Origin: Collimonas silvisoli
Lineage (GTDB): Bacteria > Pseudomonadota > Gammaproteobacteria > Burkholderiales > Burkholderiaceae_D
DNA length: 38,198 nt
Direction: 5' to 3'
Assembly (NCBI RefSeq): GCF_018305005.1
Contig: NZ_JAGQEG010000057.1
Span: 1-38,198, forward strand
Shown: positions 25,521 to 38,198 of the stretch, piece by piece
Layout: each line of letters opens with the position of its first letter
Position numbering within the stretch: the first letter of the stretch is position 1
Translations under genes and position numbers: made by a program
Notes under the pieces: model-generated
Seen by the model: the letters and a program-made list of their open reading frames with translations, nothing else
Told to the model about the DNA's origin: nothing
The model's database searches: none

Positions 25521-26369
25521 TCAAGGCATCGGCTGGAATTTCAGCTCACTGATCGGGGTAATCTTTTCAGTGCGAGCAAGGCCATATGTGGTTTGTGGTC
25601 CCAGCCATTTATCCCAGATCTTTTTGAATTCGCCGCTGTTTTCCAGGCTCATCAGACCCTTGTTCACTGCGCTGGAAAATGCGGATTCCTCTTTGCGCAT
25701 GCCAGCACCGATGGGCTCAAGCGCCATTGGCTCCTTCAGAATGGCCAGCTCATCCTCCGTTCCCTTGGTCTTTTTCACAAAGTCGATAGCGGTCATCATA
25801 TTGGTAACAAAACCATTTACCTTATTCTGTTGCAACGCAAGGTATGCTGAGCCAGTGTCCTGGAAGGTGACAGGAACACCGTTCTTGACTGACATGTGAA
25901 TCGACTGTTCGGAGGTCGATCCTTTGGTCGCACTGATTCTCTTGCCTTCAAAATCGGCGAGCGTCTTGTTCGCGTCGGCCTTTTTCACCAACAACACCTC
26001 TTTCGTGACGTAATAGGCGTTGCTGAATTCAATCTGTTCTGCGCGTGTTTTTGTGTAAGCAAGGTTTGCGATAACCAGATCGACCCGGCCCATTTTGACT
26101 TCCGGGATCCGTGCCTCAACCGACATCGGCTTCAGCGTTGCCTTGAGTCCCATTTCTTTAGCCAGTGCCGTGCACAGGTCAACATCCATTCCTACCAACG
26201 CCCGTGTTTTTGGATCTGGATAGGAGAAAGGCACAACATCGGCATAGACGCCGCAGAGCAATTCCTTTCTTGCGTTGACATCCTGAAGCTGATCAGCCAA
26301 CGCCATGCTTGCCAGGCCGACGGTACAACCAAGCAGGCAGAAACCGAAAACGATTTTCTTCAATATCAT
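25521..26369 (-). CDS. Amino-acid ABC transporter substrate-binding protein
   Basis: A 282-residue periplasmic family 3 binding protein. The signal peptide MILKKIVFGFCLLGCTVGLA ends near ALAD. The mature protein has LCGVYADVVPFSYPDPKTRALVGMDVDLC at the ligand cleft, MGRVDLVIANLAYTKTRAEQ, and GKRISATKGSTSEQ. I start at ATG 26369 because GAGGAG lies 7 bp upstream. It is the last gene of the four-gene importer operon, behind a hairpin that may let it be expressed differently from the membrane parts. A polar amino acid is the likely ligand. Confidence 0.93.
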   Translation of the reverse strand: MILKKIVFGFCLLGCTVGLASMALADQLQDVNARKELLCGVYADVVPFSYPDPKTRALVGMDVDLCTALAKEMGLKATLKPMSVEARIPEVKMGRVDLVIANLAYTKTRAEQIEFSNAYYVTKEVLLVKKADANKTLADFEGKRISATKGSTSEQSIHMSVKNGVPVTFQDTGSAYLALQQNKVNGFVTNMMTAIDFVKKTKGTEDELAILKEPMALEPIGAGMRKEESAFSSAVNKGLMSLENSGEFKKIWDKWLGPQTTYGLARTEKITPISELKFQPMP

Positions 26370-26462
26370 GTTAAAACTCCTCAAATGATCAAACAGGACC
26401 CAGCTAAAAGACCTTCATCAAACAGATAGAGACCACAGAAAACACCAACAAGACGGGGGCTG

Positions 26463-26481
26463 GTGGACTGTTACAGTCCAC
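26463..26481. promoter_or_regulatory. Hairpin between ATPase and binding-protein genes
   Basis: A perfect 8-bp stem GTGGACTG/CAGTCCAC with a 3-nt loop lies 12 bp after the ATPase stop codon. There is no T tract. Such intercistronic hairpins in importer operons stabilise or partially terminate the message to raise binding-protein levels. Confidence 0.6.
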
Positions 26482-26493
26482 TAGGTACGATGG

Positions 26494-27222
26494 TTAATGT
26501 GAACGCAAATCAGAAAGAAAACGCTGCGCGCGCGGATGTTGCGGCCGAGCAAAAAACTCCTCTGGCGTGGCTTTCTCCAGAATTGTGCCGGCATCCATAA
26601 ACCACACCAGATCAGCAACCTCTCTGGCAAATCCCATTTCATGCGTGACACACATCATGGTCATGCCGTCCCGCGCCAGGCTCTTCATGACAGACAGCAC
26701 TTCACCGACCATTTCAGGGTCGAGCGCACTGGTCGGTTCGTCAAACAACATGACCGGTGGATCCATTGCCAGCGCACGCGCAATGGCAACGCGCTGCTGC
26801 TGGCCGCCCGACAATTGCCCCGGATACGCATCGGCCTTATTCGACAAACCAACCCGTTCAAGCAAGCCAAGCGCCTTGGCCTTGGCGTCGCTGCGCTTGA
26901 GTCCCGAAACCCGCATCGGCGACAAAATGATATTTTCCAGCACCGACAGATGCGGAAACAAATTGAATTGCTGAAATACAAAACCGATCCGGCTGCGAAA
27001 GCGATTCAGATCGATACCGGGCGCATTGACATCCTGACGATCGAATGCGATCTGTCCCTTCTGAATATCTTCGAGCCGGTTGACAGTGCGGATCAAGGTC
27101 GACTTGCCCGAACCGGAAGGGCCGCATACCACGACTACCTGACCTTTCTTGACCTCTGCATTGACATCCACCAGCGCGTGATAGCTGCCGTACCATTTAT
27201 TCACATCGGAAAAAATAATCAT
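26494..27222 (-). CDS. Amino-acid ABC transporter ATP-binding protein
   Basis: A 242-residue GlnQ/HisP-type ATPase powering import from the cytoplasmic face. All motifs are intact: Walker [11 protein letters not shown]-loop [17 protein letters not shown], signature [15 protein letters not shown], Walker [15 protein letters not shown] and the switch His in CVTHEMGFA. It overlaps the upstream permease by 4 bp. It is the only ABC ATPase in the window, so it is also the nearest candidate to serve the orphan permeases at 21160-23410. Confidence 0.96.
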
Positions 27223-27986
27223 GCTTGTTCCTCGGAAGAGCCCGCCATGGAAATCTGCGGCAATTTGTCGATATTGGGGACCGCATTCGCTACGCGTTTT
27301 CCACCACGGCGTTTATGTGTGATGCGCCGCTCCAGATAATCGGCAAATTGCGTGAATGAAAAGCAGACGATAAAGTAAGTCAGGGCCAGGATCATGAAAA
27401 CCGGCAACGGCTTGGTCAGCAGCTGGTTATTCACCTGATTGGCGGCAAACGTCATTTCCGGTACATTGATCACATAGCCAAGCGAGGTCTCTTTGATGGT
27501 CGAGACGAATTGGCTGACCATGCTCGGCGTCATGTTATACAAGGCTTGCGGCAGAATGACGTGGCGGATGGTCTTGAAATAACTTAAGCCGAGCGCCCGC
27601 GAAGCTTCGATCTGCCCGCGCGGCAACGCCTCGATACCGGCCCGTATCACTTCCGATAGATAAGCGCTCTGATAGATCACCAGTGTGCACAGCATGGTTG
27701 TGAAACCGGTAATCGTCCGCCCGATCAGCAAGGGCAGAAAAAAATAAGTCCAGAAAATCACCATGAGCAGCGGAATGCCGCGCACCACGTATACCAGCAC
27801 GGTGGCGGGCATGCGAAACACCGCCATTGGACTGATCCTCGCCAATGCCAGCAGGATACTCACGGGAAATGCCAAACCCAGTCCTAATAGCGAAAGAATC
27901 AGGGTGACCGACAGCCCGCCTAGCGGACCATGCGGATATTGCCCGATCAGGAACAGTTGCCAGTTATCGGCTAAGATCTGAAACAT
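27219..27986 (-). CDS. Amino-acid ABC transporter permease
   Basis: A 255-residue HisM-type permease with about five membrane segments. The coupling loop is canonical ([20 protein letters not shown], then [14 protein letters not shown]), in contrast to the permeases at 21-23 kb. It lies 3 bp after the first permease and overlaps the ATPase gene by 4 bp. The C-terminal tail is unusually long and charged ([14 protein letters not shown]). Confidence 0.94.
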
Positions 27987-27989
27987 GAT

Positions 27990-28691
27990 TTATCTGCTCC
28001 CCGGAATACGATAGTGTCGAGTCAGCAATGCACCTGCTGCCATGATGACGAGCGAGAGCAGCAAATAAAACACGCTGGCTACCATATAAGATTCAAAAGT
28101 CCGGAAAGTGTAATTTTCCACTTGGCGCGTGGCATACGTCAGCTCGGCAACGCCGATTGCCATCGCCAGACTGGAGTTTTTGAATAGCAACACGGTGTGA
28201 TTGACCAGCGGCGGAATCGCGATCCGCATTGCCTGCGGCAGAATGACGTACCACATGCTGCGGATATAACTTAATCCCAGCGCTCGCGATGCTTCGAACT
28301 GTCCATGAGGAATCCCCCGCAAGCCGCTTCTGATGTCTTCCGAAATATAGGCCGCCATGCACAAGCCGATCGCGATCACGGAAAACAGAAACTCGCCGTT
28401 GTACTGATTGATCCACATTTGCGTTGCTTGCGGCAATAAGGACGGCAGCGCGAAGTACCACATCATGATCTGAACCAGCATGGGTACGTTGCGGTGATAA
28501 GCGACAAATGCCGAGACCAAGCCTTTGGCAATGCGATTGTTCGTCATGCGGATGGTCGCAAGCACCACTCCCAGCACGAATGCGAGTATCCAGGAAAACA
28601 GCGCCAGCTCGAACGTCAACTCGATGCCCTTGATAAGAATCCCGGCATACTGGCCTTGCAAGATCACCGAGAAATTAATGTGCTGGTTAAT
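27990..28691 (-). CDS. Amino-acid ABC transporter permease, possible ATT start
   Basis: A 233-residue HisM/GltJ-type permease with a canonical coupling loop ([20 protein letters not shown]). The first standard start is GTG at 28665-28667, which has no ribosome site before it. Eight codons upstream, an in-frame ATT (28689-28691) is preceded by GAGGGAGAAGG at ideal spacing, and the residues it adds (INQHINFS) look like the usual polar N terminus of this family. I therefore extend the gene to ATT. From GTG the length would be 225. First gene of the importer operon. Confidence 0.88.
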   Translation of the reverse strand: MNQHINFSVILQGQYAGILIKGIELTFELALFSWILAFVLGVVLATIRMTNNRIAKGLVSAFVAYHRNVPMLVQIMMWYFALPSLLPQATQMWINQYNGEFLFSVIAIGLCMAAYISEDIRSGLRGIPHGQFEASRALGLSYIRSMWYVILPQAMRIAIPPLVNHTVLLFKNSSLAMAIGVAELTYATRQVENYTFRTFESYMVASVFYLLLSLVIMAAGALLTRHYRIPGSR

Positions 28692-28705: not shown

Positions 28706-29029
28706 AATTCAACAACGGCTGAAAATGCGATTCCTTTGAATACATCAGTTCACGCAGGAAAGAATACGCGGGATAAAAAATATAAGAAAAGACGCTTTTC
28801 ATCTGGGACGATAAGTTTCTGAAATGGTGGTGCAAATACACCTTCAGTCTGGAAACAAATCCCCATACAGGTGATCTTTTCCATGGTTCAGGACACAATT
28901 CGCACCAATGTAGTGCTCGGATTGCCTGATGAAAAATGGCGTCTTCAGTTAATCAGGCCGAGTGCGTCCGGCGCTCGGCAAGCTTCCGTCAGCGTGCCAC
29001 CCCGTCAAGCGCGACAGAGGGATGCCGTC
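28706..29029. other. Upstream region of the amino-acid importer operon
   Basis: 324 bp without a gene. The part nearest the operon is AT-rich and should hold its promoter. I looked for ATA-N9-TAT and sigma-54 elements here and found none with correct spacing, so this operon does not obviously share the control seen further right. Confidence 0.45.
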
Positions 29030-30135: not shown

Positions 30136-30882
30136 TCAGGCCGGTTCCGGCTTAATCGTCGTCAAGCCGCCGCAGACCTGCAAAGTCGGCATGATTTCGA
30201 TATTGCCGATATTCACCGCAATCGGCGCGGAAATAGCAAAAGCAATGGCGTCGGCAATGTCGGAGGCTTGCGGCAGTTCGAAGCCGTCAATGAATTTGCG
30301 CCGGCCCTCCTCGATGTTGCCGCTGACATGGCCAAAGATATCCGTTGCTACGCGGCCCGGGCAGATTTCCGTGACGCGCACGCGTTTGCCGGTGGCATCA
30401 ACGCGTAACTGACGAGACAAAGCATGTACCCCTGCCTTGGTCGCGTGATAGATGGAGTTGCCATTGAAGTTATAGATTGCAGCAATCGAAGTGATATTGA
30501 CGATATGCCCGCGGTCACGCTCGACCATGCCAGGCATGGTCAGACGCACCAGATGCAGCACGGCTTGCAGATTCACTTCCACTTGCGAATCGACGTCGTT
30601 GACGCTTGCGTTGAGAATCGAACCCGGAGTAGAAATGCCCGCGTTATTGACCAGGATATCGAACTGAACTTCCTGCGTGAGTTTGGTGATGGCATCGAGA
30701 TCACGCACATCAAGCACATGCGGAATGCAACCGGTACGCTCGGCCAGTTCCTTGAGCGGACCGGCGCTGCGGGCCAGTGCGTGCACTTCCAGTCCTTCAC
30801 GGCAAAAGCGCTCCACGATCGCCGCACCCATGCCTGTCGAAGCACCGGTTACCAACGCGGTTTTATAGTCTGAAAATGGCAT
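30136..30882 (-). CDS. Short-chain dehydrogenase/reductase
   Basis: A 248-residue classical SDR of the YdfG/3-hydroxy acid dehydrogenase kind. Seen: ALVTGASTGMGAAIVE (cofactor loop), DILVNNAGIS, INITSIAAIYN with the catalytic Ser region, and YHATKAGVHALSR with the Tyr-Lys pair, then EICPGRVATD. AGAGGA precedes the ATG. A 68-bp promoter copy with a Nac-type box lies just upstream. Substrate unknown; pairing with a D-2-hydroxyacid dehydrogenase suggests serial oxidation or reduction of a hydroxy acid. Confidence 0.93.
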   Translation of the reverse strand: MPFSDYKTALVTGASTGMGAAIVERFCREGLEVHALARSAGPLKELAERTGCIPHVLDVRDLDAITKLTQEVQFDILVNNAGISTPGSILNASVNDVDSQVEVNLQAVLHLVRLTMPGMVERDRGHIVNITSIAAIYNFNGNSIYHATKAGVHALSRQLRVDATGKRVRVTEICPGRVATDIFGHVSGNIEEGRRKFIDGFELPQASDIADAIAFAISAPIAVNIGNIEIMPTLQVCGGLTTIKPEPA

Positions 30883-30940: not shown

Positions 30941-31008
30941 CAATATATATGGCGCCAGAAAATGCCGCCAAGACGGATTGGGTTTGGAGGGATAAGGTGT
31001 GCTTATGG
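30941..31008 (-). promoter_or_regulatory. Nac-type promoter/operator, copy A (upstream of SDR)
   Basis: On the minus strand: ATA-N9-TAT box with arms ATAAG/CTTAT (30992-31006), a CCAA-N6-TTGG inverted repeat (30968-30981), -35 TTGGCG (30966-30971) and -10 TATATA (30944-30949, 16-bp spacer). The box centre is about 64 bp before the expected start near 30935. I count 54 of 68 positions identical to copy B at 36032-36099. Confidence 0.75.
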
Positions 31009-31019
31009 CTAAGCCATTT

Positions 31020-31784
31020 TCAGACCAGCCGCGACAGCGGCACGATGCGGCCATTCACCGCCTGAATCGCGCCGCGGATAGTCCGCGCCAGTTCAACCGC
31101 GCCGGGCGTATCGCCGTGCAGCAGTATCGAATGCACCTTGATGTTGAGTTTTTTTCCCGTGATGGTCGTGACATTGCCGTCTTCGAGAAGTTGTTTCACG
31201 CGTTGCAATACGGCGTCGCGGTCCTTGATGACCGAACCGGCGATCTTGCGTGAAACCAACGCACCCTCGTCGTCGTACGCACGGTCGGCAAGGAAGGTAT
31301 TGGCGAATCTGACGCCGATCTTTTCGGCGGCACGTTCGATTTGCGTATTCGTGGAGACGCCGATGATGAGCGTGGGGTCGAACTCGGCGACGGCGCGCAC
31401 CAGCGGCTCCGCGAGCTGGTAATCGGCGGCCGCCATATTCCCGAGTGCGCCATGAAAGCTCATATGCGTAACGCGGTGGCCTGCGGCCTTGGCAATGCCG
31501 GCCAGCGCGCCGAGCTGGTACAGCACATATTTGCTGACTTCGGAGGGATCTATCTGCATTTGACGGCGGCCAAATCCCATCAGATCGGGAAATCCCACGT
31601 GCGCGCCGACTTCGATCCCGCGCGCCAGGGCAAGACGGACAGTCCGGTCCATGATGACCGGATCACCGGCATGGTAACCGCAGGCGACATTAGCGGAGGA
31701 AATGATTTCCAAGAGCGCTTCATCTTCACCCATCCGGTAAGGGCCGAAGCCTTCGCCCAGGTCTGCATTCAAATCGATATCCAT
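31020..31784 (-). CDS. pxpA: 5-oxoprolinase subunit PxpA (LamB/YcsF family)
   Basis: A 254-residue protein opening MDIDLNADLGEGFGPY, the clear LamB/YcsF signature, then ANVACGYHAGDP and VGAHVGFPD with likely metal/substrate His and Asp. With PxpB and PxpC this family forms an ATP-dependent 5-oxoprolinase that opens L-pyroglutamate to glutamate. I start at ATG 31784 because GAGGAG lies 7 bp upstream. It is the last gene of the six-gene operon, 16 bp after the carrier gene. Related enzymes act on other lactams, so the substrate may differ. Confidence 0.93.
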   Translation of the reverse strand: MDIDLNADLGEGFGPYRMGEDEALLEIISSANVACGYHAGDPVIMDRTVRLALARGIEVGAHVGFPDLMGFGRRQMQIDPSEVSKYVLYQLGALAGIAKAAGHRVTHMSFHGALGNMAAADYQLAEPLVRAVAEFDPTLIIGVSTNTQIERAAEKIGVRFANTFLADRAYDDEGALVSRKIAGSVIKDRDAVLQRVKQLLEDGNVTTITGKKLNIKVHSILLHGDTPGAVELARTIRGAIQAVNGRIVPLSRLV

Positions 31785-31800
31785 AGCATCACTCCTCAAT

Positions 31801-32232
31801 TTAGTCTTGCCCGGCCGCCAGGATTTCGATCAAGCGTGTTCCATAATCGACTGCCGTTTCGTGTTCCATCAGGATCCCGGTTACAACGCCGTCGAGCGGC
31901 GCGCTGACCGGCGCGTATATCTGGCCAATCTTGAGCAGGCCGAGAACATTGCCTTTTTTTACCTCGTCTCCGACCTTTGTAAACGGTAAGGAGCGCAGCG
32001 GATGCGTGGTAAGGAAGATACCGACGGATGCGGCAACGGCCGCCGTGCGGCCACTGCCGGCGTGCGACGGGCTGACCGGGCTTTCCTCGACCGGCGCAAC
32101 AGCCTGTTCCAGGGTACGGCCATTGCTCGCCAGCGTCAGGCGCACCGTCTGGCCTGCGTTGGTGAACTCGAAATAGTTGATGTCCGATGCCTCAAGCCAC
32201 GCTGTGATCTGCCGCAATTTCTCAATTTTCAT
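31801..32232 (-). CDS. Biotin-carrier-like protein lacking the biotinyl lysine
   Basis: A 143-residue AccB-like protein. The N-terminal helix-strand part (MKIEKLRQITAWLEASDINY), an Ala/Pro/Ser linker about 45-70, and a C-terminal biotinyl/lipoyl-fold domain (VGDEVKKGNVLGLL, then APVSAPLDGVVTGI) are seen. The EAMKM motif that carries biotin is replaced by LKIGQIY, with Gly where the Lys should be, so it should not be biotinylated. It sits between pxpC and pxpA, while a true carrier opens the same operon at 35464-35925. It may have a structural role in the complex. Confidence 0.82.
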   Translation of the reverse strand: MKIEKLRQITAWLEASDINYFEFTNAGQTVRLTLASNGRTLEQAVAPVEESPVSPSHAGSGRTAAVAASVGIFLTTHPLRSLPFTKVGDEVKKGNVLGLLKIGQIYAPVSAPLDGVVTGILMEHETAVDYGTRLIEILAAGQD

Positions 32233-32292
32233 CTGCTCGTTTCTCCGCGCATTTCCTGACGCTTTTTTTGGCGCATTTTCTGGTTTAGCTGC

Positions 32293-33294
32293 TCACCGGC
32301 TCAAGTTGCGATACAAACCGGCCAGATTGCGGACCCGGCCCAGATAATGGTCTATCGAGCCAAGCGCCGCCACCGCATCCTCGTACGTCGTTTTGACGAA
32401 CCTGAGCTTCTCGCCGATTCTGGCCTGGCCCAGACGCCACAAATCCGCCTCGATCACGGTGCCGATCTTGGGGTAGCCGCCGGACGGCTGGGCATCGCGC
32501 AACTGGATGATCGGCTGTCCGCTATGCGGAACCTGGATAACGCCCGGCACAATGCCATGCGAACGCTTCTCGATAGCTCCTGTCGGCGAAATCGTCGGCC
32601 CTTCCAGCCGGTAACCATAGCGATTGCTTTGGGGCGTAATTTTCCAGTCGGCGCTCCAAAACGCGCGCACGGAATCGTCCGTGTAACGATCGTATTCTCC
32701 GGCCGGCAGTACGCGTACCGCTATCACTTTCTCCTCCAATGCATGGTCGGTTAGCGGCAGCGCAAAGTCCGGAGGTTCTGCGCCGAACCCACACGGCGGT
32801 ATTGCGGTGGCGGCAGCGTCCGATGCTGCCGCTCCGATGGCGCGAATGACATCTCCTTTTTCCAGCGGCCGTCCCTGAAATCCGCCGAATTGTCCGCGCA
32901 ACTGCGTGCTGCGAGATCCGAGTACAACCGGAACATCCACGCCGCCGGTCAGCGTCAGATAAGCTCTCGCGCCGCTGGCGGGAACGCGCAAGGATAGTAC
33001 CTGTCGCTTGCGCGCCTGCATGGCCCACCACGGTGGGATGGGCATATCGTCAAGCTGCGCCGAGCAATCCGCACCGGTCAGGGCGAAGGCAATATCTTCC
33101 AGAAAGCGCACTTTGAACGGCAGAATGGGAATTTCAATTCCTGCGGCATTTTCGTCATTGCCAAGGAGAATATTGCCCACTGCCAGCGCAATGCGATCCA
33201 TCGCGCCGGATGTGCCGACGCCGAAGCGCAAATAGCCGTCGCGTCCCATATCCTGAACCGTGCTCAGGGCCGAAGAAGAAAGAAGCTCGATCAT
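32293..33294 (-). CDS. pxpC: 5-oxoprolinase subunit PxpC / KipA-type carboxyltransferase
   Basis: A 333-residue protein of the biotin-dependent carboxyltransferase/KipA family, homologous to half of the carboxyltransferase domain of urea carboxylase. Seen: LSTVQDMGRDGYLRFGVGTSGAMD, GVDVPVVLGSRSTQ, SNRYGYRLEGP, and HGIVPGVIQVPHSGQPIIQL. It overlaps pxpB by 4 bp. With PxpB it forms the ring-opening unit; here it also sits with a biotin carboxylase and carrier. Confidence 0.93.
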   Translation of the reverse strand: MIELLSSSALSTVQDMGRDGYLRFGVGTSGAMDRIALAVGNILLGNDENAAGIEIPILPFKVRFLEDIAFALTGADCSAQLDDMPIPPWWAMQARKRQVLSLRVPASGARAYLTLTGGVDVPVVLGSRSTQLRGQFGGFQGRPLEKGDVIRAIGAAASDAAATAIPPCGFGAEPPDFALPLTDHALEEKVIAVRVLPAGEYDRYTDDSVRAFWSADWKITPQSNRYGYRLEGPTISPTGAIEKRSHGIVPGVIQVPHSGQPIIQLRDAQPSGGYPKIGTVIEADLWRLGQARIGEKLRFVKTTYEDAVAALGSIDHYLGRVRNLAGLYRNLSR

Positions 33295-33962
33295 TTGACT
33301 ACCCTCTCAACGCGGAAGCGGATCATATCCCCGGGCGCCAATACAGCAGGCTTTTCGCGAAAGGGGTCGAAGAACGACATGGAAGTGCCGCCGATGGTAT
33401 TCCATCCGCTCGGGCCGCAGGAGGCGGAAACGCCGGTTTGCACGCCGCCGATCGACACCGAGCCGCCCGGCAAACTCAAGACCGGCACCTTTCTGCGCGG
33501 AACCGCAATGCGCGGGTCCATGCCGCCCAGATAGCAATAGCCGGGGTGGCTGCCGAGTGCGTAGACCGTATATAACGGCGCGCTATGTATCTGCACGACG
33601 TCGTCTGCTGAAAGGCCGGTGTGGGCAACCACGTCACCCAGGTGCGGGCCCAGAGCACCGCCATAGACGACCGGCAACTCGATCAGATTGCCTTCGATTG
33701 TCAATTCCTGCGCCGCATCCCAGGCTTCTCGCACTGCCGCTTCGAGCGATGCGATGTCCGCCGGCGGCGTAGCGAAAATGAGCATCAGATTGCTCATGCC
33801 GGGTACGGCCTCTTTAATGCCGGGCCAGGTTTCAACCTGACGTGCCAGCGACCAGATACGGCGCTGATTAGGCAGATCAAGAACGCCCGGCGCCTCGAAC
33901 AGCATCGCGGTCGTGCCGAGCAGGCTGATCTTAAGCGGCTCGTTCAAACTGTCGGTTGTCAT
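33291..33962 (-). CDS. pxpB: 5-oxoprolinase subunit PxpB / KipI-type
   Basis: A 223-residue KipI/allophanate hydrolase subunit 1-like protein. Seen: the N-terminal [16 protein letters not shown] strand pair, the family signature [18 protein letters not shown], and [22 protein letters not shown], then [13 protein letters not shown]. It overlaps accC by 4 bp on one side and pxpC by 4 bp on the other, showing tight coupling of biotin carboxylase and the two oxoprolinase subunits. Confidence 0.94.
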
Positions 33963-35347
33963 CCTGGTAAGTTCCCATCAGAATCGGGTTGTTTCTGCGT
34001 CGCTTTGCGCTGGGTCAGCCATCTTTCAAGATGGTGAATATCGACACCGCCGCGACAGAACGGCTGGTCCAGCAGTATTTCGCGATGCAGAGCAATATTG
34101 GTGCTGATGCCGTCGACTCGCATTTCCGACAGGGCGACCCGCATGCGCGCCAGCGCCTCGTCGCGCGTGGCCCCATGTGCGATGACTTTGGCGATCAGCG
34201 AATCGTAATAGGGCGGCACCGCGTATCCGGCCGTGACATGTGTATCCACGCGCACGCCATTGCCTCCCGGCAGGTCCCATCTTGCAATCTTGCCTGGCGA
34301 GGGCAGGAAGGTATAAGGATCCTCGGCATTGATGCGGCATTCGATTGCATGCCCGGCTGCCGCGATATCGGCCTGTGCGATGCGCAAAGGCTCGCCGCGC
34401 GCGATGCGAATCTGCTCCTGCACGATGTCGACGCCGGATGTCAGTTCCGTGATCGGATGCTCGACCTGCAAGCGGGTGTTCATCTCGATGAAGTAGAAAC
34501 TGCCATCCTCATACAGGAACTCAAAGGTTCCCGCACCGCGATAGTTGATTTGTTTGCAGGCCGCGACGCAGCGCTCGCCGACTTCTCGAATCAGCGCCTC
34601 CGGAATGCCGGGCGCAGGCGCTTCTTCCAGCACTTTCTGGTGGCGGCGTTGCATCGAGCAGTCGCGCGCTCCCAGCCACAGCGCGTTGCCGTGGGTATCG
34701 CATAGAACCTGGATCTCGACATGACGCGGGTGCTCAAGGAATTTCTCGATGTACAGCTCGGGTTTGCCGAAGGCGCGGCGCGCTTCTTCACGCGTGACAG
34801 AGATCGCGTCCAGCAGTTCCGGCTCGGTTTTGACAACGCGCATGCCGCGACCGCCGCCGCCGCCGGCGGCCTTGACGATGACCGGATAGCCGACGCTGCG
34901 GCCGATTTCCAGAATCTCCGCGGCATCTTCGGGCAGGCCGCCGTCGGGACCGGGCACACACGGCACGCCGGCTTCACGCATCGCACGCTTGGCGGCAACC
35001 TTGTCACCCATCGTACGGATGGATGCGGATGTCGGGCCGATGAAAGTCAGCCCGGCCGCTTCGACAGATTCGGCAAACTCGGCGTTTTCAGATAAGAAAC
35101 CGTAGCCCGGATGAATGGCTTGCGCGCCGCTCATTTCTGCCGCAAGAAGTATCGCCGAGCGATTCAGATAGCTGAGCCCCGGTTGCGCAGGGCCTACGCA
35201 CAGAGCCTGATCCGCCAATTCGACGTATCTGGCTTGCCGGTCCGCTTCTGAATGAATGGCGACCGTTTTGATTCCCAACTGGCGGCAAGCGCGCTGGATT
35301 CTCAGCGCGATCTCGCCGCGATTGGCGATGAGTACCTTGTCAAACAT
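33959..35347 (-). CDS. accC: Biotin carboxylase (AccC-like)
   Basis: A 462-residue ATP-grasp enzyme that carboxylates biotin on its carrier with ATP and bicarbonate. Seen: [34 protein letters not shown], the ATP-binding Gly-rich loop [27 protein letters not shown], and the catalytic Glu/Arg in [16 protein letters not shown] start at ATG 35347; the upstream extension overlaps accB and is low-complexity. The C-terminal tail ([12 protein letters not shown]) is longer than usual. It is probably a paralogue dedicated to this operon; the cell would need a separate housekeeping accBC. Confidence 0.92.
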
Positions 35348-35463
35348 GACATTTTCCGAAAAAGGTAAAAGCCGCACGCGCTGCGACGGTGACAATGGCT
35401 GCGGCGGCGGCATCGGGATTAAGGTGTTGGCGCAGGTGTTGGCACATGAGACAGTCGATGCCG

Positions 35464-35925
35464 TCATTCGATTCGGAACAATGCTTGTCCAACTTCCACT
35501 TCCTTTCCTGCCTCCGCAAGGATGGCGGAAATTTTTCCTGCACACTCGGCTTCAATCGTATTAAACATTTTCATGGCTTCGATCACGCACAGCACTTGCC
35601 CCTCCCGCACGTCGTCGCCAACCTTGACGAAGGTCGGCTCACCGGGCGACGGCGTCAGATGCAGCACGCCATGCATGGGTGCTTTCTGAAGATGGAGCGA
35701 AGGTGCGGGCGCCGGTGTTTGCGGCAATAGCGGTTCCGGCGTAGATACTGGTGCTATCGGAGCGTCGAGATAGCGCGCTTCAGACGCCGCGATGAAGCCT
35801 GGCTCGCGCCGTCCTGCCCCCCTTTTTTCCAGCCGTATCCGTTCCTCATTTTCGATAAGCTCCAGTTCGGATAGGCGGGTATTCGATACCAGATCGATGA
35901 GAGACTTGATTTTTTTTAGATCCAT
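35464..35925 (-). CDS. accB: Biotin carboxyl carrier protein (AccB-like)
   Basis: A 153-residue carrier. The N terminus [20 protein letters not shown] is typical of AccB, followed by an Ala/Pro-rich linker about 65-85 and a biotinyl domain with [14 protein letters not shown], whose Lys is the biotin site. It is first in the operon accB-accC-pxpB-pxpC-carrier-pxpA, 116 bp before accC and about 100 bp after the predicted start at promoter copy B. Confidence 0.93.
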
Positions 35926-36031
35926 CTAATGGCCTAAGCCTTATCAACGTTATTCACGGCCGACCAATCATGTTGTTGCCGGCAGAGTAAGCATCCGTCT
36001 GACTTTTGGGGGATATTCTTGAACATATCGC

Positions 36032-36099
36032 CAATATATATGCGACCGAAAATTCCCGCCAAGAGGGATTGGCTTTGGTGGGATAAGGCAGCCTTATGG
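36032..36099 (-). promoter_or_regulatory. Nac-type promoter/operator, copy B (upstream of accB operon)
   Basis: On the minus strand: ATAAGG-N3-CCTTAT (36083-36097), a perfect 6-bp palindrome that fits ATA-N9-TAT and T-N11-A, then a CCAA-N6-TTGG repeat (36059-36072), -35 TTGGCG (36057-36062) and -10 TATATA region (36033-36040). Same spacing as copy A. Best-formed of the three copies. Confidence 0.8.
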
Positions 36100-36118
36100 T
36101 TCTATCGTGGTTGGATGC

Positions 36119-36793
36119 TCAGTTGGCGCAGCGCGCTTCCAGCGCATCGATGAAAGCGCGGTTCCAGCGTCCTTCCTTCATCGCGCGGATGGTTTCCGCT
36201 TCCGTGGCCAGGACGGCGCGAGCCTTTTCGATCAATTCCCCGACGCCGTCCTGCGGGATGGCCAGTAGGCCGTCCTGATCACCGACGATGATGTCGCCGG
36301 GGTTGACCACCATGCCGCCGACGCACACCGGCACGTTGATTTCACCGGGACCGTCCTTGTACGGGCCGCGGTGGGTGACGCCGCGGGCGTACACCGGAAA
36401 ATCTCTCGCGCGAATCTCTGCCACGTCGCGGATCGCACCATCGATCACCACGCCGGCGAGCCCTATGCTGGCGGTATAGAACGACAGAATACCGCCGACC
36501 ACCGCATTATTGAGGTCACCGCCGGCATCGATCACCAGCACGTCGCCCGGACGGCAGAACTCAAGGGCGCGCAGAAACGTCAGGTTGTCGCCGCCGCGCG
36601 AGCGCGCCGTGACAGCCGTGCCGGCCATCGTCTGCGTGCCAGCGCGTTGGTAGGGCTGCAGCCCCACGCTGCCAATGTTGCGATGCATGTTGTCGCTGAG
36701 TGCGGACACAGGGATGTCGCGCAGTGCGGCAAGGATCTGCGGGTCGGCCTGAGCAGCCGAGGGGTTCTTGCGGAGGGCTTTGTACGCGGTCAT
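36119..36793 (-). CDS. RraA-family protein (HMG aldolase / oxaloacetate decarboxylase-like)
   Basis: A 224-residue member of the RraA/4-hydroxy-4-methyl-2-oxoglutarate aldolase superfamily. Seen: VSALSDNMHRNIGSVGLQPY near the N terminus, GGDNLTFLRALEFCRPGDVLVIDAGGD, then GVVIDGAIRDVAEIRARDFPVYARG, with the Arg-Asp (IRD) pair typical of the metal-binding aldolase/decarboxylase branch, not the RNase E inhibitor. VNPGDIIVGDQDGLLAIP closes the domain. It lies between promoter copies B and C, transcribed from copy C. Likely splits or decarboxylates a 2-oxo acid in the same pathway. Confidence 0.87.
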   Translation of the reverse strand: MTAYKALRKNPSAAQADPQILAALRDIPVSALSDNMHRNIGSVGLQPYQRAGTQTMAGTAVTARSRGGDNLTFLRALEFCRPGDVLVIDAGGDLNNAVVGGILSFYTASIGLAGVVIDGAIRDVAEIRARDFPVYARGVTHRGPYKDGPGEINVPVCVGGMVVNPGDIIVGDQDGLLAIPQDGVGELIEKARAVLATEAETIRAMKEGRWNRAFIDALEARCAN

Positions 36794-36982
36794 GGTTATC
36801 CTTGGGTGGGTGTTGTCGCGGGGGCGCTTCAGCGCAGCGCCGTGGCCGCACGGTTGATGCGGGCGCAGCCTTCTATTGGCGCTGCCGGCAGCCGAACTGC
36901 CGGGTGCCGGCGTAGTGCGCCGGATGCGGGCGGCAATGCAATGGGTTCACGGCGTTCCTTGCTGCGGCGTTGGGAGAGGCTT
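36794..36982. other. Leader region of the RraA gene
   Basis: About 190 bp between predicted promoter copy C and the RraA start codon. It is GC-rich and I see no small gene or clear terminator. The long leader is notable but unexplained. Confidence 0.4.
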
Positions 36983-37050
36983 AATAGTATGACCGCGAGG
37001 CAGCTAAGGCCAAGACGAGTTCGCTCTGCCACAATAGGCAACCCTTATGG
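36983..37050 (-). promoter_or_regulatory. Nac-type promoter/operator, copy C (upstream of RraA gene)
   Basis: Aligns without gaps to copies A and B, with CCAAGACG and CTTATGG cores kept and the centre diverged. It has ATA-N9-TAT at 37034-37048, -35 TTGGCC (37008-37013) and -10 TACTAT (36984-36989). It is the weakest copy; its half-sites are less symmetric and the CCAA-N6-TTGG repeat is degenerate. Confidence 0.6.
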
Positions 37051-37126: not shown

Positions 37127-38053
37127 TTACAACTCGGCGGCAGTGGGCAAGCCGATGTTGCGCGCCAGATCGCCAACCAGTTCAAGCAGGATATCCCTGA
37201 CCGCCCTGGCTGGATCGGACATTGGCAAATGGTCTGAAACACACAGTGAAAGCGGCATTTCGATGACCGGATCGACAATCCGGTATAGCCGGGCGCCGCT
37301 CGGCCCGGCGATCACGCGCGCCGCCGAATCCGGCAAAATGGTCGCGCCGAGACTGGCGGCCAGCGCAGCCGTAAGCGTAGCGGCAGATTCGATCTCGGCC
37401 ACCACCCGTGGTTTCATTTGCGCGTGCGTGAACGCTTCATTGACATATTTGCGCACGTAGTTGTACGGACGCGGCAATAACAACTCCACATCGTGCAATT
37501 CCGCCAAGGCGATTTCCCCTTCCGGCAGATACATGTTGGATGGAGCAACCAAAAACAGTTCTTCTTTAATCAGCAACTGATAAGAGAGGCCATGAAACGA
37601 TTTCTCGCCGTACAACACCGCCATATCCATGCGACCGTTCATGATCAGTTCGCTCAGCATGGAGCCAAAGTTTTCATTGATGTACAACAGGATATCGGGA
37701 TGCCGCGCTCTTACCGTCTGCAGCAAGGGCAAGGATAGCGTCGACGCTGCCGTACCCGGCGCCAGTCCGACCGAGACTTCTCCGCAAAGCGTCTGGCTGG
37801 AATGTTTGACATCGTTTTGCGCCTGCTCTATCTGGCGCAAAATAATCTGCGCATGGCGGTAGAGCGTGATCCCCGCCTCGGTTGGCGTTACCCCGCGCTT
37901 GGTCCGCACCAGAAGTTGTTGCCGAAACTCGCCCTCCAGCACCGCCAATTGCTGACTGAGAGCCGGTTGAGCGATATGGAGTATCTCGGCGGCCTGCGTC
38001 AGGCTACCGATATCCACAATTTTCACAAAATACTTAAGTCGCCGCAAATTCAT
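37127..38053 (-). CDS. nac: LysR-family regulator, Nac-like
   Basis: A 308-residue LysR-type regulator. The N terminus (MNLRRLKYFVKIVDIGSLTQ, then AEILHIAQPALSQQL and LLVRTKRGVTPTEAG) is nearly that of enterobacterial Nac, the nitrogen assimilation control protein, as I remember it. The effector domain shares GLAPGTAAS and AEIESAATLTAALAASLGA with Nac. I start at ATG 38053; the frame opens further up but without support. A sigma-54 element lies just upstream, as in Klebsiella nac. Three ATA-N9-TAT sites, the Nac pattern, lie in the neighbouring promoters. It is co-directional with the RraA gene. Orthology to Nac is likely but not proven. Confidence 0.88.
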   Translation of the reverse strand: MNLRRLKYFVKIVDIGSLTQAAEILHIAQPALSQQLAVLEGEFRQQLLVRTKRGVTPTEAGITLYRHAQIILRQIEQAQNDVKHSSQTLCGEVSVGLAPGTAASTLSLPLLQTVRARHPDILLYINENFGSMLSELIMNGRMDMAVLYGEKSFHGLSYQLLIKEELFLVAPSNMYLPEGEIALAELHDVELLLPRPYNYVRKYVNEAFTHAQMKPRVVAEIESAATLTAALAASLGATILPDSAARVIAGPSGARLYRIVDPVIEMPLSLCVSDHLPMSDPARAVRDILLELVGDLARNIGLPTAAEL

Positions 38054-38081: not shown

Positions 38082-38097
38082 CGCAAGAATCGCGCCA
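38082..38097 (-). promoter_or_regulatory. Sigma-54 (-24/-12) promoter of the nac-like gene
   Basis: The minus strand reads TGGCGC-N5-TTGCG, with GG and GC exactly 10 bp apart as the sigma-54 consensus TGGCAC-N5-TTGCW requires. Transcription would begin near 38071, just before GGAGGAG and the ATG at 38053. A TGCACC half-site near 38130 could be part of an NtrC enhancer, but no full site is seen before the window ends. Confidence 0.72.
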
Positions 38098-38198
38098 TTG
38101 CCGTAATACGATTTATATTTATATTTTATTTGCACCGCTATTTTAGGGCCTGTTAACAATTAATTTGGGAGATGCGTTCAAACCAAAACGTGTGGTGG

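What the first reader, a model, noticed from the sequence alone, without database searches (positions are those of the whole stretch)
30941..37050. Three homologous 68-bp Nac-type promoters define a local regulon
Seen: segments 30941-31008, 36032-36099 and 36983-37050 align without gaps. Copies A and B share 54 of 68 positions by my count; copy C keeps the cores. Each has ATA-N9-TAT, a -35 TTGGCG/TTGGCC and an AT-rich -10 at like spacing, with the box centred near -62 to -64. Known: Nac of Klebsiella binds ATA-N9-TAT and activates from about -64. Inferred: the Nac-like regulator at 37127-38053 controls RraA, the accB-pxp operon and the SDR/dehydrogenase pair as one regulon.
Basis: partly seen in the sequence, partly recalled or inferred. 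Interest (0 to 1): 0.82.

Follow-up and report, generated by a model that had tools for sequence, protein, structure and literature searches.

The report
Local Nac-type regulon with five promoters
A gene switch of the Nac type, known from gut bacteria as a global nitrogen regulator, here appears to run only its own neighbourhood, a cluster that seems to take up and break down an unknown nitrogen compound, through copies of one promoter element that recur before the same genes in many related bacteria.

Summary
A and B share 54 of 68 positions. C is only marginal over 68 bp (33 and 37) but keeps the core exactly. All three read on the minus strand: a 15-bp LysR box near -64, a second conserved block, an 18-bp spacer and a -10. 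The regulator is NCBIfam NAC (462 bits, cut-off 309). Two further copies were missed: D (28760-28827, ABC transporter) and E (contig C42, aminotransferase). In 25 whole genomes the composite element has 61 matches, all inside the nac loci: a local regulon, unlike the enteric one. Nitrogen control of the regulator gene is strongly suggested in Pseudomonas (sigma54 motif 17 of 17, exact NtrC site 12 of 17), partial here (sigma54 motif, no NtrC site) and mostly absent in Burkholderia- and Variovorax-type loci. Binding, activation, nitrogen response and substrate are untested.

The parts
30941..31008 (-). Copy A: promoter/operator of the SDR-dehydrogenase unit (box 30992-31006, -35 30966-30971, -10 30942-30947, predicted start about 30935)
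   Evidence: 54/68 identical to copy B; core pattern 0 mismatches; ATA-N9-TAT before SDR in 68 of 74 relatives' clusters; coordinates
36032..36099 (-). Copy B: promoter/operator of the accB-accC-pxpB-pxpC-accB2-pxpA operon (box 36083-36097, -35 36057-36062, -10 36033-36038, predicted start about 36026)
   Evidence: ATA-N9-TAT before accB in 74 of 74 relatives' clusters; exact palindrome before accB in 76 of 80 loci
36983..37050 (-). Copy C: variant box (ATAAG-N5-CCTAT) before rraA (box 37034-37048, -35 37008-37013, -10 36984-36989)
   Evidence: 33 and 37 of 68 to A and B; ATAAG-N7-TAT in 13 of 13 same-strand rraA loci, ATA-N9-TAT in 0 of 31 opposite-strand loci
28760..28827 (-).
   Evidence: 34/68 to each of A, B and C, itself near chance; the 15 sites of this form in 1.55 Mb of relatives' loci all lie before the same ABC gene; present in 15 of 18 clusters where the dehydrogenase intervenes, 0 of 51 where ABC follows SDR directly; right-half pattern occurs 3 times in the own genome: A, B, D
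37127..38053 (-). Nac-type LysR regulator gene
   Evidence: NCBIfam NF008410 462 bits, cut-off 309; HTH nearly identical to E. coli Nac, 51% overall
38083..38097 (-). Candidate sigma54 (-24/-12) promoter of the regulator gene, TGGC-N7-TTGC, beginning 44 bases before the start codon
   Evidence: same motif toward nac in Herbaspirillum sp. CF444 and in 17 of 17 Pseudomonas intergenics; also found before E. coli nac
38145..38198 (.). Left end of a multi-copy element of about 340 bp with inverted ends (MITE-like); the contig ends inside it, and the aminotransferase contig C42 begins with the other end of such an element
   Evidence: 27 matches to the terminal 27-mer in the genome with up to 2 mismatches; complete copies on C7 and C144; contig length
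36119..36793 (-). RraA-like protein, predicted target of copy C
   Evidence: PF03737, NF004850 302 bits, cut-off 231
35464..35925 (-). accB1, biotin carrier protein with EAMKM biotinylation motif, first gene behind copy B
   Evidence: TIGR00531 126 bits, cut-off 115; sequence
33959..35347 (-). accC, biotin carboxylase
   Evidence: TIGR00514 677 bits, cut-off 627
32293..33962 (-). pxpB (33291-33962) and pxpC (32293-33294), the carboxyltransferase-type halves of 5-oxoprolinase / urea carboxylase
   Evidence: TIGR00370 and TIGR00724 over their cut-offs
31801..32232 (-). accB2, BCCP-like protein without a biotinylation lysine motif
   Evidence: TIGR00531 45 bits, below its cut-off 115; sequence
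31020..31799 (-). pxpA (LamB/YcsF)
   Evidence: NF003814 343 bits, cut-off 226
30136..30882 (-). SDR oxidoreductase, first gene behind copy A
   Evidence: PF00106
29030..30046 (-). D-2-hydroxyacid dehydrogenase, nearest model glyoxylate reductase
   Evidence: NF009714 312.5 bits, below its cut-off 455
25521..28667 (-). polar amino-acid ABC transporter (permeases 27990-28667 and 27219-27986, ATPase 26494-27222, binding protein 25521-26384), behind copy D

Best explanation
A Nac-type LysR regulator encoded in the cluster binds a composite operator-promoter (15-bp palindromic box ATAAG-N5-CTTAT at about -64 plus a conserved block reaching the -35) and activates sigma70-type promoters at five local units: accB-accC-pxpBC-accB2-pxpA, SDR-dehydrogenase, rraA, the amino-acid ABC transporter and an aminotransferase. 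It is a local regulon of an uptake-and-degradation cluster for a nitrogenous substrate. In Pseudomonas, and possibly here, the regulator gene is itself read from a sigma54 promoter; in most of the Pseudomonas loci that promoter has an NtrC-type site above it, so nitrogen shortage would switch on the regulator and the regulator would switch on the pathway. Shown: conservation, position, specificity and linkage of the element. Inferred: binding by this protein, activation rather than repression, nitrogen response, substrate.
For: The regulator is NAC by NCBIfam, with an HTH nearly identical to E. coli Nac. The 142 exact palindromes in 1.55 Mb of 80 loci lie before accB (76), SDR (65) or nac (1); reversed-pattern control 0. 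Box before rraA in 13/13 same-strand loci, before the aminotransferase in 67/69 pxp loci where it was found, D form before the ABC genes in 15/18 where the dehydrogenase intervenes and 0/51 where it does not. Conservation is low around the element in 28 distinct accB and 33 distinct SDR promoters, the latter including copy A. Specificity: 61 matches in 24 of 25 genomes, reversed control 0, each inside a fetched nac locus when coordinates are compared; own genome 4 at 0 mismatches and no further one up to 3, reversed control 1. Cascade: sigma54 motif toward nac in 17/17 Pseudomonas intergenics; exact NtrC-type palindrome in 12/17, which are 12 of the 14 in 342 kb; the same searches find the sigma54 motif and a one-mismatch NtrC-type site before E. 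coli nac.
Against: No binding or expression data. C is marginal over its full 68 bp; D lacks the left half-box and is near chance over 68 bp; E has a poor -10. The 31 opposite-strand rraA genes have no box. SDR has none in 6 of 74, four of these with gaps of 46-55 bp. The full 37-base form is absent from Marinomonas, though its boxes are present, and its strict form is before the aminotransferase in only 40 of 75. No NtrC-type site in this genome or in Herbaspirillum CF444. The sigma54 motif is absent in Paraburkholderia-type (0/22) and rare in Variovorax-type intergenics (2/33); in Pseudomonas it also occurs in the opposite orientation in 5 of 17 intergenics and before SDR in 3 of 18 loci. 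One genome of 274 drawn across the class has an exact composite match that was not explained (G093; reversed control also 1). The 80 loci are the best of 466 found and are related to each other.
Confidence: 0.87

Rival explanations
1. The elements are operators of a different LysR protein, or of a global regulator, and the neighbouring nac-type gene is not their reader.
For: The box alone is generic: CynR sites are also given as ATAA-N7-TTAT, one at -66 (PMC5002191, passage). The own genome has 86 further matches to the NAC model below its cut-off.
Against: 61 of 61 elements found in 25 genomes lie in nac loci; a global regulator would be expected to have sites elsewhere. The genome's only NAC over the cut-off is this one, and CynR scores 134 bits on it against 462 for NAC.
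Confidence: 0.07
2. The linked regulator represses rather than activates these promoters.
For: Nac both activates and represses sigma70 genes in E. coli (PMC6299236, passage); the second block reaches the -35.
Against: Box centre at about -64 and weak -35 hexamers (TTGGCG/TTGGCC) at A, B and C are the usual anatomy of LysR-activated promoters (recalled).
Confidence: 0.15
3. Copies A and B are only a recent duplication or a mobile repeat without a regulatory role.
For: 54/68 identity between A and B.
Against: No scattered copies in the genome. Both positions are kept in Burkholderiaceae, Comamonadaceae and Pseudomonas loci, with little conservation around them.
Confidence: 0.01

Closest known systems
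Nac (nitrogen assimilation control) of E. coli / Klebsiella
   Same: NCBIfam NF008410 over cut-off; HTH nearly identical, 51% overall; sigma54 motif before the gene here, in Herbaspirillum CF444 and in Pseudomonas, as before E. coli nac; E. coli nac is NtrC-activated and Nac acts on sigma70 genes (PMC6299236, passages).
   Different: Composite sites were found only in the gene's own cluster region (own genome: three in the window and one on contig C42; relatives), whereas E. coli Nac-regulated genes span diverse processes (PMC6299236). The box is ATAAG-N5-CTTAT; the Klebsiella consensus ATA-N6-TNGTAT is recalled and was not found in a held paper. A second conserved block lies at the -35.
CynR-cynTSX (LysR family)
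   Same: Box of the form ATAA-N7-TTAT centred at -66 (PMC5002191, passage).
   Different: CynR model gives 134 bits against its cut-off of 277 on this protein; none of the 14 window proteins scanned is named as a cyn enzyme.
PxpABC 5-oxoprolinase
   Same: PxpA, PxpB and PxpC subunit families.
   Different: Here joined by a biotin carboxylase, a carrier with a biotinylation motif and a second carrier-like protein without it, i.e. laid out like a split urea carboxylase. Substrate unknown.

Membership tests
NAC (NF008410) | Protein passes the curated family cut-off | tested here: met
   462 bits against 309
NAC (NF008410) | Orthologous to the enteric nac gene rather than a paralogue | tested here: inconclusive
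   E. coli Nac falls inside the cluster-linked clade (96/91) on a long branch; the tree with the 28 others held together without it is not rejected, p-AU 0.106. Only one enteric sequence was used.
NAC (NF008410) | nac transcribed by sigma54 under NtrC | tested here: inconclusive
   sigma54 motif at 38083-38097, but no NtrC-type site at 0-1 mismatch on either side of the MITE-like element; in Pseudomonas relatives sigma54 17/17 and exact NtrC-type site 12/17
NAC (NF008410) | ATA-N9-TAT site centred about -64 of a sigma70 promoter | tested here: met
NAC (NF008410) | Global regulon | tested here: not met
   composite sites: own genome 4, relatives 61 of 61 in nac loci; sites of another form would be missed
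NAC (NF008410) | Activates without a small-molecule inducer | not testable with these tools
   biochemical; property recalled
LysR-type operator (T-N11-A) | Palindrome containing T-N11-A near -65 | tested here: met
   ATAAG-N5-CTTAT, centre -64 from a predicted start; motif definition in a passage of PMC5002191; the position is recalled
CynR | Protein passes the CynR model cut-off | tested here: not met
   134 bits against 277
PxpABC 5-oxoprolinase | PxpA, PxpB and PxpC all present | tested here: met
   PxpC passes the domain model TIGR00724 but not the equivalog NF045499 (303 against 500 bits)
PxpABC 5-oxoprolinase | ATP-dependent cleavage of 5-oxoproline | not testable with these tools
   enzyme assay needed; the added biotin carboxylase and carrier may mean a different chemistry

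The most novel reading that the evidence does not exclude
The enteric global regulator Nac descends from a pathway-specific regulator of this cluster: the NtrC-sigma54-nac relay and the operator were first built for one biotin-dependent oxoprolinase/carboxylase pathway, and enteric bacteria kept the regulator, lost the pathway and spread its sites over the genome.
Probability: 0.3. Interest if true: 0.72.

Novelty: new variant of a known kind. Interest (0 to 1): 0.55.

Why it matters
Proteins that pass the NAC model are named 'nitrogen assimilation transcriptional regulator', yet in these Beta- and Gammaproteobacteria the evidence points to a dedicated regulator of one conserved cluster. That warns against transferring the global role by name, gives a searchable operator, and in Pseudomonas ties probable NtrC control to an uncharacterised uptake-and-degradation pathway (ABC transporter, aminotransferase, biotin-dependent oxoprolinase-like carboxylase, RraA-like protein, dehydrogenases). 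It also makes the origin of enteric Nac a testable question.

Tried and rejected
Element as scattered repeat: rejected. The palindrome with one mismatch as a genome-wide regulon: 40 places against 102 for the reversed control, so the relaxed 15-mer carries no signal by itself and the composite pattern was used. Composite pattern with up to 1 mismatch in 274 genomes drawn across the class: one genome besides the own has a match (G093, 0 mismatches), and the reversed control also has one (G239); G093 was only listed for open reading frames. Composite pattern in 195 family genomes: only the own one. NAC model in 143 genomes drawn across the class of Herbaspirillum CF444: only that genome itself at E 1e-95 or better, so this gave no further sequences for a tree. 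Tree with E. coli Cbl and the C1 paralogue: long branches joined; rebuilt without them. Lysine-motif count in accB2 of relatives (73 without, 1 with): the frame was often wrong, so the count is not used. Printed Nac consensus: not found in the held library (passages of PMC5217608). Earlier description of this cluster or operator: none recognised in the listings, which cover only the held open-access papers. rraA rows of L003 and L018 (54 and 59% identity) were left out of the count of 44.
Full report
Check of the observation. The three segments align without gaps. Apart from the copies, the best 68-mer in the window scores 34 against A or B, at 28760 (later copy D), and then 33. Shuffled upstream regions reached at most 36, 33 and 34 for the three pairs (12 shuffles each), against real values of 54, 35 and 37, so C is marginal on full length. 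The genes identified lie on the minus strand, and on that strand each copy reads box, block, -35, 18-bp spacer, -10: ATAAG-N5-CTTAT (C: ATAAG-N5-CCTAT), CANA-N3-A-N5-TC, TTGGCG (C: TTGGCC), then TATATT (C: TACTAT). The box centre is at -64 of the predicted start. The core pattern has 3 matches in the window against 0.01 in shuffles, although it was partly drawn from these copies.

Genes. The regulator (37127-38053) passes the NCBIfam NAC model with 462 bits (cut-off 309); the next model, CynR, gives 134. Copy C stands before an RraA-like gene, copy B before accB-accC-pxpB-pxpC-accB2-pxpA, copy A before an SDR gene followed by a 2-hydroxyacid dehydrogenase. Further along is a polar amino-acid ABC transporter.

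Relatives. One scan with the regulator found 466 relatives, of which the best 80 were kept; all counts below are on these 80 and are not independent draws. In 74 of them nac, accB, pxpA and SDR are all found; four (L025, L026, L036, L049) have a nac-type gene without pxp, and two (L057, L058) are short or end near the cluster. Four of the six SDR misses (L019-L022) have gaps of only 46-55 bp. Over the 80 loci (1,548,338 bases) there are 142 exact ATAAG-N5-CTTAT sites: 76 before accB, 65 before SDR and 1 before nac (Marinomonas, L073); the reversed pattern has none. With promoters clustered at 80% identity, 28 distinct accB and 33 distinct SDR promoters (copy A among the SDR set) show high information over the box, over the block CA(A/C)AGCCAA-N-CCGTCTTGGC and at the -10, and little elsewhere.

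Copy C. Of 44 loci with an rraA relative (at least 70% identity, at least 200 bp upstream), the 13 with rraA on the cluster's strand all carry ATAAG-N7-TAT (11 with one mismatch to the palindrome, 2 with two). The 31 with rraA on the opposite strand carry no ATA-N9-TAT. Shuffled upstream regions reach one mismatch in 0.2% of 880 trials.

Positions 28760-28827 agree with each of A, B and C at 34 of 68, which alone is near chance. The left half-box is lost, while CTTAT and the second block are kept. In the 80 loci the D form (AAACTTAT-N5-CAGA-N-GAAA, drawn from the window and a few relatives) occurs 15 times, each time before the same ABC gene. It is present in 15 of 18 clusters where the dehydrogenase lies between SDR and ABC, and in 0 of 51 where ABC follows SDR directly. 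The promoter thus tracks operon structure, which speaks for function. In the own genome CTTAT-N5-CANA-N3-A-N5-TCTT occurs three times: A, B and D; reversed control 0.

Copy E, outside the window. The composite pattern has one more match in the own genome, on contig C42 at 380-418, and no further one up to 3 mismatches, where the reversed control has 1. It lies before an aminotransferase (NF004769, 699 bits, cut-off 617). This aminotransferase was found in 75 of the 80 loci, divergent from and within 900 bp of nac in 74. ATA-N9-TAT lies within 150 bp upstream of it in 67 of 69 pxp loci, in both truncated loci, and in none of the four pxp-less loci; the stricter composite form is there in 40 of 75. 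The window's contig ends inside a multi-copy element of about 340 bp with inverted ends, and C42 begins with the other end of such an element. The two contigs are therefore probably neighbours with this element between nac and the aminotransferase. This adjacency is inferred; the right flank lacks the TA seen beside the two complete copies, and 11 of the 27 terminal matches lie within 170 bases of a contig start.

Specificity. In 25 whole genomes chosen from the 80 loci for diversity, the 37-base form of the element has 61 matches in 24 genomes; the reversed control has none. Comparing coordinates, the 61 lie inside the fetched nac loci (two of them, in Caballeronia mineralivorans, in the pxp-less nac locus L026). 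The Marinomonas genome has none of the full form. This is a local regulon as far as this element goes; sites of another form would be missed.

Upstream control. A sigma54-type motif TGGC-N7-TTGC points at nac in the window (38083-38097), in Herbaspirillum CF444 and in 17 of 17 Pseudomonas aminotransferase-nac intergenics, but in 2 of 33 Variovorax-type and 0 of 22 Paraburkholderia-type ones, and not in Marinomonas. Controls within the Pseudomonas loci: opposite orientation 5 of 17 intergenics, before accB 0 of 18, before SDR 3 of 18, and 60 in 353 kb on both strands. In 9 of the 17 it begins 51-63 bases before nac, in 8 it is 169-361 bases away. An exact NtrC-type palindrome GCACY-N5-RGTGC is in 12 of 17 Pseudomonas intergenics, 12 of the 14 in 342 kb, 89-126 bp above the sigma54 motif. 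The same search recovers the sigma54 motif before E. coli nac and a one-mismatch NtrC-type site 133 bp above it. The 17 Pseudomonas intergenics also each hold a second ATA-N9-TAT box above the sigma54 motif, perhaps for self-control. In the window and in CF444 no NtrC-type site with 0-1 mismatch was found. Nitrogen control is therefore likely in Pseudomonas, possible here, and perhaps replaced in Burkholderia- and Variovorax-type loci. The NtrC and sigma54 consensus sequences are recalled.

Descent. The regulator's HTH is nearly identical to that of E. coli Nac, with 51% identity overall. In the tree E. coli Nac falls inside the cluster-linked clade (96/91) but on a long branch; the alternative with E. 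coli outside is not rejected (p-AU 0.106). One of 15 genomes sampled in the own genus (the own one) has a relative of the regulator at E 1e-90 or better, and only the own genome of 195 in the family has the composite element. The cluster is rare there, by gain or by loss; Herbaspirillum CF444 is the nearest carrier seen.

What it does. Inferred: the regulator activates uptake (ABC transporter) and breakdown of a nitrogenous compound. BC (accC), carrier (accB1) and the two carboxyltransferase halves (PxpB, PxpC) together resemble a split urea carboxylase with PxpA in place of the hydrolase. One speculative route, from enzyme families only, is a hydroxylated 5-oxoproline: ring opening, transamination, aldol cleavage by the RraA-like protein, and reduction of glyoxylate by the dehydrogenase. 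No call tests it.

Literature. What was seen: abstract, section list and passages of PMC5002191; passages of PMC6299236, PMC5217608 and PMC13390462; search listings only for the rest. PMC13390462 lists pxpABC among genes whose mutants attach less to roots in P. protegens; whether that is this cluster was not checked.

Noticed in passing
window 38145-38198; contig C42 1-158; complete copies on C7 (6522-6864) and C144 (54297-54638): A MITE-like element of about 340 bp with inverted ends, 27 terminal matches in the genome, probably sits between nac and the aminotransferase, 91 bp above the nac start codon; it may part the sigma54 motif from any upstream enhancer.
   Followed up: partly
window 31801-32232: The second BCCP-like protein has GQI where accB1 has the biotinylated MKM. 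Relatives that were read in frame look alike (e.g. L008, L035, L064, L079).
   Followed up: partly
L026 655-677 (Caballeronia mineralivorans): A nac-type gene without pxp genes has a back-to-back pair of composite elements shortly before a 2-hydroxyacid dehydrogenase: possibly a second kind of cluster with the same operator.
   Followed up: no
Pseudomonas loci L062-L065, L067, L068, L070, L072, L074-L082, upstream of nac: These 17 loci have a second ATA-N9-TAT box above the sigma54 motif of nac, possibly self-control.
   Followed up: no
L116 (genome G093, C153:2372-2410): One distant class member has an exact composite match of unknown meaning.
   Followed up: no
own genome, genus and family samples: The regulator is found in 1 of 15 genomes of its genus and the composite element in 1 of 195 of its family, the own genome in both cases, which suggests acquisition of the cluster or repeated loss.
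   Followed up: partly
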